A DNA stretch of 64,000 bases from Lactarius indigo. Its lineage: Eukaryota; Basidiomycota; Agaricomycetes; Russulales; Russulaceae. Positions 1,806 through 61,923 of this stretch are shown here, one piece after another. Each line of letters opens with the position of its first letter. Position 1 is the first letter of the stretch. A program made the translations under genes and the position numbers. The notes beneath the pieces are model-generated. The model was not told where the DNA came from and did not search any database. It saw only the letters and a list, made by a program, of their open reading frames with translations. The stretch lies in the NCBI GenBank assembly GCA_025766275.1, contig JAFKAC010000013.1:62001-126000 (forward strand). The letters are read 5' to 3'.

Positions 1806-4800
1806 TCATACCCGTCCACTTCTTCGGACAATAATCGTACAATCCTCTGCTGTTCCGAGTCCCAGTCGCTGACAGTCTTCCCGCTGTTGTTGCTGCGCAC
1901 CTGTGCATCCGCATACCGCCGGTCCCAACAACGCACACGCAACGTCAAAGTCTCCATCTTCTGATGTAAAGTGTGATGACGTAGACCTGGATCCGTAAGT
2001 CGCTTTGAGCATCGGCCTCTACATCATGATCGAGAAGTATCTGAGTGATCCCGCGGTGCCCATTGGCAGATGCGATATCCAATGGAGTGTTTCCACTCTT
2101 GTCGCGCGCATGTACATCCTGCACCGTGGTCCAACAATAACGAAACAACGTCGAGTTCTCCCTCCTCCGAAGCAAGGATGTAATGGGGTAGATCCGCAGT
2201 CGTTCTGGGCATTGACCCCCGTGTTGTACTCGAGCAGTATTCGAGCAATCCTCGACGAGGGTGTTGATCGCCGCTTGGTGCAGTGGGGTGTTTCCGCCGT
2301 TGTCGCGTGCATCCGGGTCCGCACCACGGTCCAACAATAGGCGCACAAGGCCAAGCTCCGCTTCATCCGGATGCGCAACGTAACGGGGTATATCCTTCGT
2401 CAGTCCCTGGCGTTGTACTCTGCACTGCGGTCGAGCAGTAACTCGGCCACCCCGAGGTGGCCGTAGGCGGCCGCGTAATGCAGTGGCATTTTCCCGCTGT
2501 TGTCGCGCGTGTCCACGTCCGCGTTGCTTGTCCAGAAGTAACCGTACGACGTCAAGCCCTCCGCCCACCCCTTCCAGTGCAAGCGTACAATGGGGTACAT
2601 CCCTCGACGTCCCGGGCGCCGACGTCCGCCTTGTGCTCGAGTAGCGTCCGAGCAACGTCGAGGTGCCCCTTGAGAGCCGCAGAATGAAGAGCAGGTCTGG
2701 CCGTCCTGCCCTCTGGGCAGTTCACGTCCGCGCCGTGGTCGAGCAGCCACTTCGCGGCATCGAGACGCCCGTGTCGCGACGCGACGTGAAGCGGCCTCAC
2801 TAGAATATGTGCCGGGAGCATTCACGTCGGCGCCATGCGCAAGCAACAGCTCGGCGATCCCGATGTGTCCCCCGTGTATCGACGAATGCAATGGAGTGCC
2901 GTATTCCCCGCTACAAGCGTTCACGTGCTGCGGGTGCTTGACTATCGTGCGTTCCACCAGACCGCGGAATCCGCAGTAGGCGGCGAAGTATAAGGGTACT
3001 GCCGAAGGAACTATCGGCGTCGCAGAGTCGGCGGGTACCTCCAATAGATCTTGTAGGCGTTGCATTCGGACCCATGCTGAGAAATGTGGCTTAGTCCGCG
3101 TCGAAGAAGGAATCGAGTGCGTCCTTGATGTCGGTACGTGATTCCACGTTTTCGAACTGCGCGTGCTTGAGCCAGCATTCGGCGGCGTACGGGAAGAAGC
3201 GGGTCGGTTTTGGAACTGTCTCCGTCCGTGTGTTCGTCCAGGCGGAGCAAGACGCTGAGACAAGCGTGGGAAAGAATGGCGTGGGCAGACTCGAGGGAAA
3301 TGTGGAACTGGGACAGCCCTTCGTTAGTCGAATTCGCGAGTCGATCCGATATCAGGAACTCTTTAACGGAGAAGTGCGAGAATTGAACGACCTGGTCTCT
3401 GCCCGTCGGTGATTCACGGACACCAGACTGGAACAGGCCAGTCAGCACCTGCGTCCTTTTGCTCTTCCCAGCGCCAACCCGTGTTCGCGCCTCCGGCATT
3501 GAACTCGATCGCAAGCACCTCCGCGAGCTCCTCGACCCGAAGTGGCCGAGCGGCCACCGTGAGGCACTGCAAAAGTCGATGGGCGGGCTTTCGGTTCGCC
3601 TCGTTGATCCCCTTCAGGATGCGCTCGTATGTTTCGTCCAGTGAATCGGGCAGTTCCTCGAGCAGACTGACGCAAGTTCGATTGGAAAACAATTCCGCAG
3701 GACCTCGACCTGACAGAAAACCCATTGAAACCTAGGTAAGAAAGGGCGTAAGAATATAACCACGATCGATTGGAGATGTCCTTACATTCCATCGGCTTTC
3801 TCTGTGAGTTTTTCAATGACCATCTTCTGGTCCTCGACTGACCATTTCTTCATTCTACTTGTCGGAGCGAACGACAAAACTAACGTAATCGATAATGTCC
3901 TGTTTTTGTCCGCTCTCATCGTGGAGAGTAACTTTCTGGGTTGCCAATGGTTCAAGTACGGTACTGATGTCGTATTCTTGACGACTCGTGACACATAGGT
4001 GCAGATTTGGATGGCGGAGCTCGACGAGTTCTTCGACAAGGTCTAGCACCTGTTCACGTGGCGGTCGCTTTCCCGGCTCGGAATCCGTAGGACACTCGTC
4101 AAGAGCATCCAAAATAAGATAAACTGGCACTTGTCCCGCGATAGAGAGCATGTCCTTGAGACATCGCGCAAGTGACTTGATAGCCTGGTCGTTCAGTTCC
4201 ATTTTGATGTTCAAGGACAACCCGCGAAGAATCTCATAGAATCGGTCGGATTGACTGGCGAGCTGGACAAGGAGGGACGATAATAAAGCACGAGAGTCCT
4301 GTTTTTCTGGTGCCTGGAAATCGAAGTAGAAATAGGCCATGTGGGCCGAGCCGGCGTCGGACATGGCCTTGATATCCCGGATGATCACAGAGCTTATCGT
4401 TGGTATAAGTTCAGCACGGACGCGGACTCGTCAGGAAGCCACACACCTTACAACGCTCTTCCCAGAGCCAGCTAGGAAACCAAGAGGTTGTTAACAGCGA
4501 TTGAAAACCCAGTGCGTAGTAGGAGACCGTACGTTTTCCGTGAATCCACAACAAGGAACCAGACGCCTTCCACTCAGCAAAGGTGTTGCTTTGGGTACAC
4601 CAGGCCGCAGTACCCTCATGATGAGCGTCGCATGCAGCGTTGTAATTTTTGGACTGGATCGGGGGGAGAGATCCAACTGCCAGTGCAAACTTCTTTGCGT
4701 ACATCGTTTCCTGCGAGGACTGCCTAAGCATTCGTGGTCGGCAAGTGTGAGGTCACGAGGTCACGAACGGTTTAGATCGCTGACTTGGTTTGTTATCTGT

Positions 4801-11897: not shown

Positions 11898-14800
11898 TCA
11901 ACCACACCACTGCCGGGCATTCAGGAACAGCCGGAACCAAGGCCCCACACCGCCCCACGTCTCCTTCATTTCGGGAGGATACCAACTATTGCTCTCCAAC
12001 GTGACGACACGCTCGGGATGAGGCATCAACGCGAGAACGCGTCCGCTCGGCGTTTGCACACCCGTGAGCCCGCCCGGGCTCCCGTTTGGATTGAGAGGAA
12101 ATACTTCCGTTGGCTTACCCGTTCCATCCACATAGCGCACTGCTCCAAGGCCCTGAGAATCGAAAGCTTCCTGCGCACCCGGGACGAACGCTGCGCGACC
12201 CTCGCCATGGGCGACCGCCACTGGAAGCCGCGAGCCACCCATGCCACGAAGGAACACCGAATCCTGCGTCGCGGTGCTGTCTACCACCTCCACGAGCGCG
12301 ACGCGCGCCTCGAACCGCCCACTACGGTTCTCCTTGAAATACGGCCACCACTCCGCGCCGGGAATCACCTCACGCATGTGGCTCAGGAATTGGCACCCAT
12401 TGCACACGCCCAGTGCGAACGCGTCGTCGCGCGCGAAGAACGCCGCGAACGCCGCCCGTGCCCCGCCGTGCAGTAATGCCGCGTGTGCCCACCCTGCGCC
12501 CGCGCCAAGCACGTCGCCGTACGAGAACCCCCCGCAAGCGGCGAGCCCGCGGAACTCACCGAGGTCGACCGTGCCCCCGACGACGTCGGACATGTGCACG
12601 TCTACCGCGTCGAACCCGGCAGCCGTGAACGCCCACGCCATCTCTGCGTGCCCGTTCACGCCTTGCTCGCGCAGGATCGCCACTTTGGGCCGGCGGAAGA
12701 GTGGGTGGTTCGGGGTTGGCGTGAATGTGAGATCGTATCTGAGCCCCGCTGCGTGTGTCTCGTCCGCGATCAGCGCAAATTCTTCGGCGGCGCAGTCTGG
12801 GTCGTCGCGCAGCGACTGCATCTGGAATGACGTTTCTGCCCAGAGTTGCTGGAGGACGGCGCGCGTGCTCGAAAATACGACGTTGCCTTGGTGTACGACC
12901 GTGAATGACTGATCTTTGGGGTCGGACAGGACCTTGCCGATGGCGTGAATCGACGTTGACTCGAAACCGTGCGCGACGAACACCTCCACGAGGCGCGCAA
13001 CGCGCGATTGCTGTACTTGTACGACCTGCACCTAAGTTCTTCGTTAAAGAGCACCTCCACCGGACCCTCTAAGCCGTGCAACGCATCCAGGTTGAGTTCC
13101 ACTCCTACACGACCTGCAAATGCCATCTCTGCCACCGTCGTGAAAAGGCCGCCATCTGAGCGATCGTGGTACGCCAGCACGAGCTCGGGGTCACTCTGCC
13201 GCACCCGTCTGACACGCATTGAAGAACGCCTTGAGTAGCTGAGGGTCCTCGACGTCCGGCACCTCCGCGCCAATTTGCCTGAAAACTTGCGCGAGTGCCG
13301 ATCCTCCCAGGCGCTGCTTCCGACAGGCGAGATCGAAGAACACGAGTGCTGTCGGGCCATCTACGTCTGTGCGCAACTGCGGTGTCCACGTCGCGCCAAC
13401 ATCCTCCACACCCGCAAACGCCGTGACAATGAGGGACAGCGGCGCCGTCACAGAGCGCTCTTCGCCACTCTGCCCATCGCGCCACCGCATCGCCATGGAC
13501 ATCGAGTCCTTCCCGACGGGAATGCCCACGCCGAGCGCAGGACAGAGTTCCATGCCCACCGCGCGCACCGCCTCGTACAGCGCGGCGCCCTCACCGGGCA
13601 CGCTTGCCGCGCTCATCCAATTCGCGCTGAGCTTGACGCGCCCAAGAGAATGCACACGCGCTGCGGCGAGGTTCGTTAGTGCTTCGGCGACCGCCATGCG
13701 CGCAGAGGCTGGCGCAGAGAGGAGCGCGAGGGGTGTGCGCTCGCCGAGGGCCATCGCCTCGCCTGCGCGGAGGCCGAAACCGTACGACGCTCGCGTGACG
13801 GCCACGTCTGCGACGGGCACCTGCCACGGGCCGACCATCTGGTCCCGCGTGACGAGGCCCGTGACGCTCCGGTCCCCAATGGTGATCAAGAACGCTTTGG
13901 ACCCGACGCTCGGCAGACGCAGCACGCGCGCAGCTGCCTCGACGAGTCGCACAGGGCAGGCGCGGTTCTGCGGGCAGGTACGTGGTGAGCGTCGCGTCGA
14001 ACGGGACGCACTCTGGAACCTGAGCGGCATCGTTGCGCGCCATGCGCGGAGGCTTGCCGAATAGAGTGGACATCTTCATCCGGATCACGTCGGCGCCGAA
14101 CAGTCGATCCGTCACGACGAGTTCGTCCGTTTCTGTAGCGGCGCCGACGACGGCAAACGGACATCGTTCGCGCGCGGCGATAGCGCGGAACACGTCTTCG
14201 TGTGCGGGGTCCACAGCGAGGACGTAGCGCTCCTGTGATTCGTTGCACCATATCTCCATTGGGGAGAGCGACGCGTCAGCGAGGGGCACGTCGCGGATCT
14301 CGAACGTCGCGCCGAGGCCTGAGTCATGCACGAGCTCCGGCAGCGCGTTGGACAGCCCACCCGCGCCGACATCATGGATGCTCTGAATGGGATTCTCCGC
14401 GCCACGCTCCACACACGCATCGATAACTTGCTGGCACCGCCGCTGCATCTCCGCATTCTCCCTCTGCACCGACGCAAAGTCCAGCACCGCGTCTCCCGTG
14501 CCCAGAGCCTGACTCGACGCCTGCGCCGCCTCCAAGCCCAATCAGCATCCCAGGGCCGCCGAGGACGACGAGCCGTGCACCAGGCGCGATCTTGGACTTG
14601 CGCGCGAACTGCGGGCGCACGGTGCCCAAGGCCACCCGCGAGCATGATGGGTTTGTGATAGCCGCGCACAGCGCCGGTGCCAGGGGACGCGCTCGGCGAA
14701 AGCACGGAAATACCCCGCGAGAGCAGGCCTGCCGAATTCGTTGTTGAACGCCGCGGCGCCGAGGGGCCCATCGAGCATGATGTCGAGCGCGCTGGCGATG

Positions 14801-15995
14801 TGCGCGGGGCGGCCAAAATCCTCTTCCCAGGGCTGTACGTAGCCCGGAACGAGTAGGTTGGACACTGAGAAGCCCGCGAGGCCCGCTTTGGGCCGCGAGC
14901 CGCGCCCGACGGCGCCCTCGTCGCGGATCTCGCCTCCTGAGCCCGTCGCGGCGCCCGGGTAGGGCGATACGGCGGTAGGGTGGTTGTGCGTCTCGACTTT
15001 GATCAGCACCGGTACGGGCGTCTCTTCCTTGCTCTCCCTGTACAGACGCTGGATGTTGGGATTCGGGGACGACGGCAGTGCGGGAGAGACGCCGAAGCGC
15101 GAGGTGGTAGCCCCCTCGAAGACGGCGGCGTTGTCAGAATAGGCGGAAATGGTGCCCGTAGGGTTCAGCTTCTCCGTGTTGCGGATCATTTGGAATAGAG
15201 AGGCCGACTGGGGTGTGCCGTCGATCGTCCAGGAGGCGTTGAAGATCTTGTGCCGGCAATGCTCCGAGTTTACCTGCGCGAACATGAAAAGCTCTGCGTC
15301 GGTCGGATTGCGTGCGACTGGGGCTACTACCCGATACGAACGCGTCGACGAGGTAGTCGATCTCGTCAGGGGCGAGGGCCAGGCCAAGCTCCTTATTCGC
15401 GCGCTCCAGTTTCTCCCTTGGCGAGATGTCGGACGACGGAGAGATGTCGACGGTGCGGAGAGGGCCTGGCTGGGACTCGAGAAAGATCGCGTCCTGGGAG
15501 GGGCGCGCGAACGACGCGGTCTGCGTCATGCGATCGTGTATGTAGTGAGAGAATAGATCGAGGTCATTTTGGGAGAGGGCGGCCCCTGTGTCGCTCGCCT
15601 CTGTTCGTACAACAAAGGCGATTCCGCGTTCGAGGCGCTTGACGTGATCGCCTAGCTTGCATAGCGTACAGATGTCCGTGGCCTTGCTCGACCAGGGAGA
15701 GACGGAACCGGGTCTGGGAAGAACGTAGATCACACCGGGGCTGCCTTCGTTGAAGGAGCGCCGCGTGTCGGAGAACGAGACGTCATCCCCGTAAGACAGG
15801 AGGCGGTCGAGCGTGCGACGCGGGGGCGAGTCGAGCTGCAGAAGTTCAATTTCGGCATCTTCAGAGATGGAGTGCACGAAGTGGATGTAGATGGCGTCTA
15901 TGGATATGACAGCCTGGGACCTGCTGGCGGATTTGCGCAAGCAAGGCGCTGCGCTTGGACGCCGATAAGGCTGATGAACCTGGGAGAAGGAGCAT
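11898..15995 (-). CDS. ADE6: Phosphoribosylformylglycinamidine (FGAM) synthetase, purine step 4; frame-broken in this sequence
   Basis: About 1366 codons without introns, matching the usual size of eukaryotic single-chain FGAM synthetase. It uses glutamine and ATP to convert FGAR to FGAM in cytosolic de novo purine synthesis. Start at 15995 gives [11 protein letters not shown] followed by the PurS-like N-terminus. Then come [18 protein letters not shown] and [20 protein letters not shown] (first AIR-synthase-like half, ATP/Mg site), [32 protein letters not shown] and [13 protein letters not shown] (second half). The C-terminal class I glutaminase has the nucleophile Cys in [12 protein letters not shown] and the His-Glu pair in LMPHPERV. 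Every segment is well conserved, yet the frame changes about eight times (near 15912, 15335, 14684, 14626, 14522, 13970, 13210, 13028). Several are cured by removing a single G/C. An essential gene this well conserved between breaks is more likely mis-assembled than dead. Confidence 0.88.
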
Positions 15996-16189
15996 CCCTG
16001 TCGACTGGTGAGATCTGCCTCTCGCATCAGATCCAAACGTATTTACCTGGATCTGCTTTTTTTTAAAAAGTGACGTTTCGTGGATGGGCGTTTCTTGCCC
16101 CTGCTGCGATTCAATCCGAGTCGGCATCGGTTTGATCTTAATCTCGACGATGACACGTGGACCGATCATTTTAAGTTACTAGAGAGCCA

Positions 16190-60610: not shown

Positions 60611-61923
60611 TTAAAAAGAGAAAGAATCCGAGACGTCATAGATAGGCCGAGACATAATACCGAATGTGAGATGATGAGCGGATAGAGGCATGAGAGATAC
60701 GAATACAGTGAACTTGTCCTGAAACCCTGGATTTGAAATTTTTAGAACACTGGTTGAGGGAGGCCAATTGATGTCCTCCCACGCGCCAAGGTCCAGCTCA
60801 AGAGGGGTGATGTCGCCCTCTTCATTGGGGAGTGGCACGATGCCATCCATGGTGAGCCCCAGCGTGGCGCCAGGCTCGGACACCAGGTCCAGTAGTCTCT
60901 GCACCTCCTTCTGTACCTCATCCGTATCAGCGTCGGCATTCATGTCGGCCAAACTTGGGTCCTGTCCCGGTACTTCTCCCCCGTCACACATCAGAGACGG
61001 CGGCGTGGAGGACGGCGTGGGGGGCGCGGCCAATATTTCACGGAAGAGTTCGTCCATCGCCGCTTCGTCAACGGTCTCGTCTTCGCCAGTACCAAGGGGC
61101 GTTTGAATGTCCTCGACTGCTTGCATGGGTCCACCCGCTGCAGGGGCACCACCGATGAGGGGGTGCTCACCACCCGTGCTGAGTGGCAAGTGGACTCATG
61201 CGTGAGGTCGAGGATACTCGAGGTATTGGATGGAAGACTGGCATTGGACGGTGAGGGGGAAATGGGGAAAATGGCGTCATCGAGCGAAAATATGGGGTTG
61301 GGCGGTACCATGACAGGGAAGGTGGTCATTGAATGTGATGGTGACGGTGATGGGGAAGAGAGGACCGAGGAGGACGATGATGGTGGTGGGGTGCTCGTCC
61401 GAACTGGGGGCGGTGGTGGTGGTAAGGTAGGGAGACCAGCCATTGTACCTTGTGTCTGAAGGGTGCGAATAATTGCCTCCCACGCAGTCTCGAGTGTCCG
61501 CACACGTTCACGCAATGCGCGAGTCTCTGCTTCACGGGCAGCATCTACCGCACGTTGTTGAGCATTGTCGATAGCTACTGGGTGAGAGTGGGCAATGCCG
61601 GCACGGAGGGCTCTATTCTCAGCTTCGAGCTCGCCAATGCGGGCCTCGAGGGCAGAAAATTGCGCCTTGCGCTTGTCACGACTGTTCTGGGCCGCAATTC
61701 GGTTGCGGTGTGCACGAGCCTCCTTGCGCTCGTCAGCAGTCATATCAGAGCGGGACCGTTTTCGTGGGGCTGCATCTTCGTTGGATGTGGGCGCAGGACG
61801 GGACTTGGCCGGGGGCTTGGAGGAAGTTGATGAGGAAGGGGATGGAGACGATTCTGGATCGTGGTATGGTGGCGATGATGGGAGAGCGAGGTTGGAAACT
61901 GAAGTTGAGTCGACGATAGCCAT
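60611..61923 (-). CDS. HAC1: Hac1/Xbp1-type bZIP transcription factor (unfolded protein response), two overlapping frames
   Basis: Start at 61923 gives MAIVDSTSVSNLALPSSPPY. The bZIP follows at about residues 55-110: KRSRSDMTADERKEARAHRN, RIAAQNSRDKRKAQF (N-x7-R basic region), LEARIGELEAENRALRAGI zipper. The basic region is of the HAC1/XBP1 class. This frame (310 codons) runs to a stop at 60991. From about 61190 a second open frame encodes an acidic C-terminus, GPMQAVEDIQTPLGTGED, ETVDEAAMDELFREILAA, LGLTMDGIVPLP and LELDLGAWEDINWP, to a stop at 60611. Removing the 38-nt segment 61141-61178 joins the two into about 424 residues with an activation-type tail. Hac1-class factors are made active by Ire1-mediated cytoplasmic splicing on ER stress. 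The identity is from sequence; the splicing is inferred. Confidence 0.82.
61132..61148 (-). promoter_or_regulatory. 3' splice-site stem-loop with 7-nt loop CTGCAGC
   Basis: mRNA sequence TGCCC-CTGCAGC-GGGTG: five pairs (three G-C, two wobble) around the loop CTGCAGC, the same loop sequence as the XBP1 3' site, cut expected after CTG. Confidence 0.65.
61141..61178 (-). promoter_or_regulatory. Candidate 38-nt Ire1-type unconventional intron
   Basis: On the mRNA the segment starts after CACTCAG with CACGGG and ends with CCCCTG before CAGCGGG. Borders are not GT-AG. Removal changes frame by two and joins the bZIP frame to the acidic frame at HSA. A boundary three bases later (41 nt, 61138-61178) gives the same frame. 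The alternative GT-AG pair inside it (GTGAGC...CTGCAG, 33 nt) does not change frame and is too short. Confidence 0.65.
61170..61186 (-). promoter_or_regulatory. 5' splice-site stem-loop with 7-nt loop CAGCACG
   Basis: mRNA sequence CCACT-CAGCACG-GGTGG: five pairs (three G-C, one A-U, one U-G) closing a seven-base loop. The loop fits the CNG|CNNN pattern of XBP1/HAC1 sites, cut expected after CAG. Confidence 0.65.

What the first reader, a model, noticed from the sequence alone, without database searches (positions are those of the whole stretch)
61132..61186. Candidate Ire1-processed unconventional intron (38 nt) in a Hac1/Xbp1-type bZIP gene
The bZIP frame and an acidic C-terminal frame overlap out of phase. 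Excising 61141-61178 joins them. Both borders sit in five-base-pair hairpins with seven-base loops (CAGCACG and CTGCAGC) cut after CNG, as in XBP1 and HAC1. As I recall, basidiomycete introns of this kind are 56 and 65 nt (HXL1, cib1), so 38 nt would be a distinct size. The protein would change from about 310 residues to about 424 with an acidic tail. The caveat is that this window contains single-base frame artefacts, so the frame change alone is weak evidence; the two hairpins are the stronger part.
Basis: partly seen in the sequence, partly recalled or inferred. Interest (0 to 1): 0.92.

Follow-up and report, generated by a model that had tools for sequence, protein, structure and literature searches.

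The report
Ire1-spliced stress-response gene in mushrooms
A milk-cap mushroom gene carries a 38-letter insert that looks built to be cut out when the cell's protein-folding compartment is stressed, switching on the gene's activator form; related mushrooms share the arrangement, and some public sequences already show the cut-out form.

Summary
Confirmed at sequence level and very probably right. The gene is on the minus strand (ATG 61923) of a Lactarius indigo contig. Its bZIP frame (310 aa) and an acidic frame overlap; removing 61178-61141 (38 nt) joins them, and both borders lie in 5-bp, 7-nt-loop hairpins cut after CNG. A local sequencing slip does not explain it: independent relatives show frame A in some genomes and frame B in others. 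Of 204 listed homologues, 168 keep the 5' site in the bZIP frame and 11 carry exactly the junction that the excision gives ([H/Q]xA|AGG): eight deposited gene models and three short contigs. In the 87 contig-derived proteins, where no gene model intervenes, 83 keep the site, 3 are spliced and 1 stops before it. Implied intron length is 38 nt in the 12 Lactarius/Russula-like proteins with both sites, 32-53 nt over 116. The genome holds Ire1 and a Trl1-type ligase. Corrections: the 5' loop departs from the yeast Ire1 consensus CNG|CNGN (no G at +3; U at -3 in 138 of 158 relatives), and the last 54 of 424 residues come from a one-base frame difference from relatives. Stress induction and dependence on Ire1 were not testable.

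The parts
60991..61923 (-). Unspliced reading frame (frame A): bZIP protein of 310 aa, Hac1u/Xbp1u-like
   Evidence: Pfam bZIP_2 PF07716 E 2.7e-9 and bZIP_1 PF00170 E 6.9e-9; 85% identical over 96% to Lactarius psammicola 310-aa protein P0001
61179..61923 (-). Exon 1 of the proposed spliced message (N-terminus, bZIP, linker, up to ...HSA)
   Evidence: block HE[PS]T[CR]H[SL]A kept in relatives
61190..61201 (-). 5' arm of an outer stem GCAUGAGUCCAC
   Evidence: Can pair with 61134-61123 at 11 of 12 positions; same limits as the sub-threshold Rfam RF04247 match 61201-61123
61170..61186 (-). 5' splice hairpin: stem CCACU/GGUGG, loop CAG|CACG
   Evidence: relatives keep [HQ]-x-A-R
61141..61178 (-). 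Proposed Ire1-type intron, 38 nt
   Evidence: Removal joins frame A to frame B; the four equivalent registers have no GT-AG or GC-AG borders; exact junction in 11 of 204 homologues
61132..61148 (-). 3' splice hairpin: stem UGCCC/GGGUG, loop CUG|CAGC (full consensus)
   Evidence: relatives keep Q-R-V
61123..61134 (-). 3' arm of the outer stem GUGGACCCAUGC; overlaps the 3' hairpin arm by three bases
60742..61140 (-). Exon 2: acidic C-terminal domain in frame B; relatives end ...QPVF, whose codons lie here up to about 60742 but in another frame
   Evidence: 193 residues of frame B identical to P0005; relatives' ends
61195..61217 (-). 23-nt GT-AG stretch whose removal gives the frame switch seen in the deposited L. 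indigo model P0005; probably an annotation artefact

Best explanation
This is the Hac1/Xbp1/Hxl1-type regulator of the unfolded protein response of Lactarius indigo. Unspliced mRNA encodes a 310-aa bZIP protein with a basic tail. On ER stress, Ire1 cuts the mRNA in two hairpin loops (CAG|CACG and CUG|CAGC), the Trl1-type ligase joins the ends, 38 nt leave, and the reading frame shifts into an acidic, presumably activating, C-terminal domain. Shown: gene, two overlapping frames kept in relatives, hairpins, conserved sites at protein level, Ire1 and ligase genes, and the exact junction in public relatives. Inferred: Ire1 as the cutter, stress induction, ligation by Trl1, activation by the tail.
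For: Hairpins and frames. Frame A read past the site to the same end in P0001-P0004 (L. psammicola, L. deliciosus, two unnamed), frame B in P0005, P0006, P0010, P0016-P0021 and P0023. Of the 204 proteins listed by three searches (each showed only its best 120 of 344, 477 and 515 hits), 168 have [TA]x[HQ]xAR in frame A and 11 have the exact junction. Among 87 contig-derived proteins, not chosen by motif, 83 have the 5' site (79 also the 3' site), 3 the junction, 1 ends before it. The codons for R-V and two bases of A lie inside the intron, so the spliced protein cannot explain their conservation. A paired change Q-L replaces H-V in 3 of 3 unspliced proteins and fits both sides of the 5' stem (probably one event); P0200, from a 1557-nt contig and 88% identical to P0094 up to the junction, shows that lineage in spliced form. 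Mycena vitilis P0199 (spliced) is 97% identical to M. polygramma P0114 (unspliced) over 222 residues. Ire1; ligase domains PF09511, PF08302.
Against: The 5' loop lacks G at +3, part of the motif of S. cerevisiae Ire1 (PMC8104961, passages), and 138 of 158 relatives lack C at -3; [quoted passage not shown] The Rfam match is far below its gathering score (19.3 against 41 bits, E 4.7) and is not listed when the whole window is scanned. The free fold prefers another structure. No DNA of relatives and no reads were available; loops of relatives are inferred from codons. The outer-stem association P-G against S-G is weak (5 of 29 against 1 of 74, Fisher p 0.006, not corrected for relatedness), and 19 of 116 proteins have P with D, a mismatch.
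Confidence: 0.95

Rival explanations
1. The frame switch is a one-base sequencing or assembly error and the gene is one continuous frame.
For: The same gene does show a one-base frame difference from relatives near 60.78 kb, and the FGAM synthase gene in the window is spread over several frames.
Against: Frame A, running past the site to the same end, is found in P0001-P0004, while other Lactarius and Russula models show frame B; 79 of 87 contig-derived homologues run through both sites in frame A.
Confidence: 0.01
2. A normal spliceosomal intron joins the two frames, as deposited gene models suggest.
For: P0005 uses a 23-nt GT-AG stretch; P0006, P0010, P0017-P0021 and P0023 reach frame B by other joins, whose DNA I could not see.
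Against: The joins differ between species (by eye); 23 nt is very short for a spliceosomal intron (recalled); the registers of the 38-nt excision have no GT-AG or GC-AG borders; eleven homologues have the hairpin junction instead.
Confidence: 0.03
3. Programmed ribosomal frameshifting joins the frames, with the hairpins as stimulators.
For: Two overlapping conserved frames with structured RNA.
Against: Eleven homologous sequences lack the intron exactly, three of them read from contigs, which a frameshift on uncut RNA cannot give. A slippery site was not searched for.
Confidence: 0.01

Closest known systems
Cryptococcus neoformans HXL1
   Same: Basidiomycete bZIP with an Ire1-removed intron downstream of the bZIP and a changed C-terminus (PMC3154848: section 7 read; other passages)
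   Different: Intron 56 nt against 38 nt here; it also has a conventional 55-nt intron, while the bZIP frame here is open from ATG on.
Ustilago maydis cib1
   Same: Basidiomycete Hac1-like gene with an unconventional intron
   Different: Intron 65 nt (PMC8071499, passages)
Ascomycete HAC1/hacA
   Same: Twin hairpins and frame change; 20-26 nt in filamentous species (PMC8071499, passages)
   Different: Consensus CNG|CNGN given there; here the 5' site is CAG|CACG
Metazoan XBP1; Rfam RF04247
   Same: Match over the whole model with outer stem and CUGCAGC 3' loop (alignment)
   Different: Score 19.3 against gathering 41; more bases between the hairpins; Rfam 15 describes that family as found in Metazoa (PMC11701678, passage)
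Agaricomycete proteins named 'X-box-binding protein 1' in UniRef
   Same: Orthologues by similarity, 38-89% identical over the aligned part in the 120 rows
   Different: The name looks automatic; the rows say nothing of an intron

Membership tests
Hac1/Xbp1-type UPR transcription factor | bZIP domain | tested here: met
   PF07716, PF00170 above cut-off
Hac1/Xbp1-type UPR transcription factor | Short intron downstream of the bZIP whose removal changes the frame and C-terminus | tested here: met
   38 nt, 38 mod 3 = 2; 310 to 424 aa in silico
Hac1/Xbp1-type UPR transcription factor | Both borders in hairpins with 7-nt loops | tested here: met
   not the free-energy minimum
Hac1/Xbp1-type UPR transcription factor | 3' loop CNG|CNGN | tested here: met
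   CUG|CAGC
Hac1/Xbp1-type UPR transcription factor | 5' loop CNG|CNGN | tested here: not met
   CAG|CACG: C-3 and G-1 present, G+3 absent. In relatives an Arg codon makes +3 C or A, and Leu makes -3 U in 138 of 158 (by the genetic code). CNG|CNGN is the S. cerevisiae motif (PMC8104961, PMC6037481, passages); S. pombe Ire1 needs only UG|C, so this lowers strict consensus, not mechanism
Hac1/Xbp1-type UPR transcription factor | Conserved in orthologues | tested here: met
   Protein level only: 83 of 87 contig-derived proteins keep the 5' site, 79 both
Hac1/Xbp1-type UPR transcription factor | Ire1 and tRNA-type ligase in the same genome | tested here: met
Hac1/Xbp1-type UPR transcription factor | ER-stress-induced, Ire1-dependent, non-spliceosomal removal | not testable with these tools
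   No reads or experiments; eleven homologues carry the exact junction
Rfam RF04247 bZIP | Score at or above the gathering threshold (41 bits) | tested here: not met
   19.3 bits, E 4.7 in 3.5 kb; not reported in the full-window scan

The most novel reading that the evidence does not exclude
Mushroom-forming fungi share an asymmetric Ire1 intron: a full-consensus 3' loop (CNG|CAGC) with a divergent 5' loop ([U/C]NG|CNCG), so their Ire1 must cut a site that budding-yeast Ire1 should reject. This would mean relaxed or differently built Ire1 specificity in a whole class of fungi, perhaps combining splicing with broader mRNA decay.
Probability: 0.5. Interest if true: 0.7.

Novelty: new variant of a known kind. 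Interest (0 to 1): 0.6.

Why it matters
Among basidiomycetes the papers I saw describe this regulator in a yeast (Cryptococcus) and a smut (Ustilago). For the white-rot fungus Pycnoporus cinnabarinus the authors reported Ire1 and Trl1 but no clear Hac1 orthologue (PMC4101180, passage); P0095, from Trametes cinnabarina, the same species under NCBI taxonomy, is a homologue of the present gene. Knowing the gene and its intron would give a direct splicing marker for secretion stress in mushrooms and enzyme-producing white-rot fungi, explain why gene models of this gene disagree, and make Ire1 loop specificity testable in a new lineage.

Tried and rejected
Rfam as proof: the match has the right limits but is not significant and is absent from the whole-window list. 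A second copy or allele in the assembly: none found. DNA of relatives: viral contigs twice and genome contigs once gave none, so no covariance model was built and loops of relatives were inferred from codons. Pairing of 5'UTR and intron as in S. cerevisiae: best run 8 bases, no control, not pursued. Outer-stem covariation from amino acids: weak. Papers: nine searches showed, in the rows listed (titles and starts of abstracts), no paper on this intron in Agaricomycetes; the 2011 survey of Hac1/Xbp1 introns (PMC3225973) and two Cryptococcus papers are not held, so an earlier description cannot be excluded.

Selection to bear in mind: all 25 sequences also show both motifs, so its invariant H, A, R, Q, R columns follow largely from my choice; the 116 were picked by regular expression for both motifs. 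The counts not chosen by motif are those over 204 and over 87. The 36 proteins left over were judged by eye: models joined elsewhere, variants of the site, P0200, and the truncated P0022.

Full report
WHAT IS THERE. The finding lies on the minus strand. Frame A opens at ATG 61923 and reads 310 aa with a bZIP domain. Frame B (60611-61195) is acidic and overlaps it. Removing 61178-61141 gives a continuous 424-aa reading. The borders lie in hairpins CCACU-CAG|CACG-GGUGG and UGCCC-CUG|CAGC-GGGUG. Around them an outer stem 61201-61190 / 61134-61123 can pair at 11 of 12 positions, sharing bases with the 3' hairpin arm. One pair of CNGC hairpins of this kind occurs on both strands of the window, against 0.2 expected per strand; in Markov sequences of gene length it occurs in 0.1% of 2000.

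WHICH ORGANISM. The window's contig is 1,560,789 bases long, the length given for the contig of P0005, Lactarius indigo. 226 consecutive residues of frame A and 193 of frame B are identical to P0005. One match to the gene was found in the 90.3-Mb assembly.

RELATIVES. Three protein searches found 344, 477 and 515 proteins and listed 120 each, together 204; the named ones that I checked are Agaricomycetes by my own knowledge. P0001-P0004 carry frame A through and beyond the intron to the same end; P0005, P0006, P0010, P0016-P0021 and P0023 carry frame B. Of 204, 168 hold the 5' motif in frame A and 11 hold [H/Q]xAAGG, what the excision gives in the window (HSAAGG): eight deposited gene models (Russula earlei, Cristinia sonorae, Gelatoporia subvermispora, Trametes maxima, T. 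elegans, Mycena floridula, M. rosella, M. vitilis) and three contigs, P0176 (1192 nt), P0200 (1557 nt) and P0202 (1344 nt). The other 25 are models joined elsewhere or truncated (by eye). The 87 contig-derived proteins give the cleanest count: 83 with the 5' site (79 with the 3' site too), 3 spliced, 1 ending before the site. If the three short contigs are transcripts they are direct sightings of the spliced RNA; their origin was not stated, and an intronless gene is not excluded, but P0200 has unspliced near relatives (P0094, P0148, P0157, 85-88% identical up to the junction).

LENGTH. Implied intron lengths in the 116 proteins with both motifs: 47 nt in 46, 44 in 21, 50 in 20, 38 in 16, 41 in 8, 53 in 2, 32 in 2, 35 in 1. 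All 12 of the fifteen best hits that show both sites give 38; the other four with 38 are P0024, P0119, P0160 and P0170.

WHY RNA, NOT PROTEIN. R-V, and two bases of the A codon before them, are encoded inside the intron and absent from the spliced product; they form the 5' loop and the 3' arm of its stem. Where H changes to Q, V changes to L (3 of 3 unspliced proteins), which lets both sides of the stem still pair; these three may be one event. Four H-L cases (P0095, P0171, P0173, P0187) read into the acidic frame right after the site and look like models joined there.

MACHINERY. Ire1: an N-terminal ORF that looks like a signal peptide plus luminal domain (by eye), kinase PF00069 E 3.7e-36, RNase PF06479 E 4.2e-23. 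Its RNase exon ends RNK and the next, after a GT-AG intron, opens KHHY; R1056, N1057 and H1061 are catalytic in yeast (PMC3149027, passages), and the correspondence is by eye. Trl1-type ligase domains lie at two places.

WHERE IT DEPARTS. S. cerevisiae Ire1 shows the motif CNG|(C/A)NGN in a 7-nt loop; S. pombe Ire1 needs UG|C in loops of varied size (PMC8104961 and PMC6037481, passages). The window's 5' loop is CAG|CACG: no G at +3. In relatives the Arg codon fixes +3 as C or A; the residue before Ala is Leu in 138, Ser in 18, Pro in 2 of 158, so -3 is U in 138 (by the genetic code). [quoted passage not shown] I could not see those sequences.

HOW IT MOST LIKELY WORKS. Ire1, activated by unfolded proteins in the ER, cuts both loops; the ligase joins the exons; the bZIP protein gains an acidic tail in place of a basic one. 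The cut sites and the product are supported by sequence; enzyme, trigger and effect are inferred from HAC1, XBP1, HXL1 and cib1.

The last 54 of the 424 residues come from a frame that the aligned relatives do not use: Russulales relatives end ...QPVF or QPVL, and those codons lie at about 60742 in another frame after a one-base difference near 60.78 kb. Intact copies exist in relatives. 38 nt is distinct from 56 and 65 but is one of a range of 32-53 nt.

LIMITS. No relative's DNA and no reads could be obtained. The Rfam match is not significant, the free fold is not the twin hairpin, and the antisense strand folds as stably. The literature library is partial and lacks the 2011 survey of these introns.

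Noticed in passing
window 60742-60800 (-): One-base frame difference from relatives near the end of the same gene; the deposited L. indigo protein shares it because it comes from the same contig, so error and real change cannot be told apart.
   Followed up: partly
window 11898-16042 (-): FGAM synthase (purine synthesis) gene spread over several frames (GATase_5, AIRS_C, FGAR-AT linker); introns or single-base slips, not resolved.
   Followed up: partly
G000 C226:412570-414920 and C168:436959-439324: Trl1-type ligase present twice although one Ire1 locus and one bZIP copy were found; possibly unmerged haplotypes or a duplication.
   Followed up: no
window 1945-4430 (-): Ankyrin-repeat and NPHP3_N frames, perhaps a fungal NLR-like gene in pieces.
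   Followed up: no
P0095, P0174: Homologues from Trametes cinnabarina and T. coccinea: probably the Hac1 that the P. cinnabarinus genome paper (PMC4101180) could not identify; their gene models are joined near the site by other junctions.
   Followed up: partly
window 60991-61140 (-), frame A: The unspliced tail keeps a basic, proline-arginine-rich end in many of the 116 relatives profiled although it is lost on splicing; probably a by-product of frame B, but a function of the unspliced form is not excluded.
   Followed up: no
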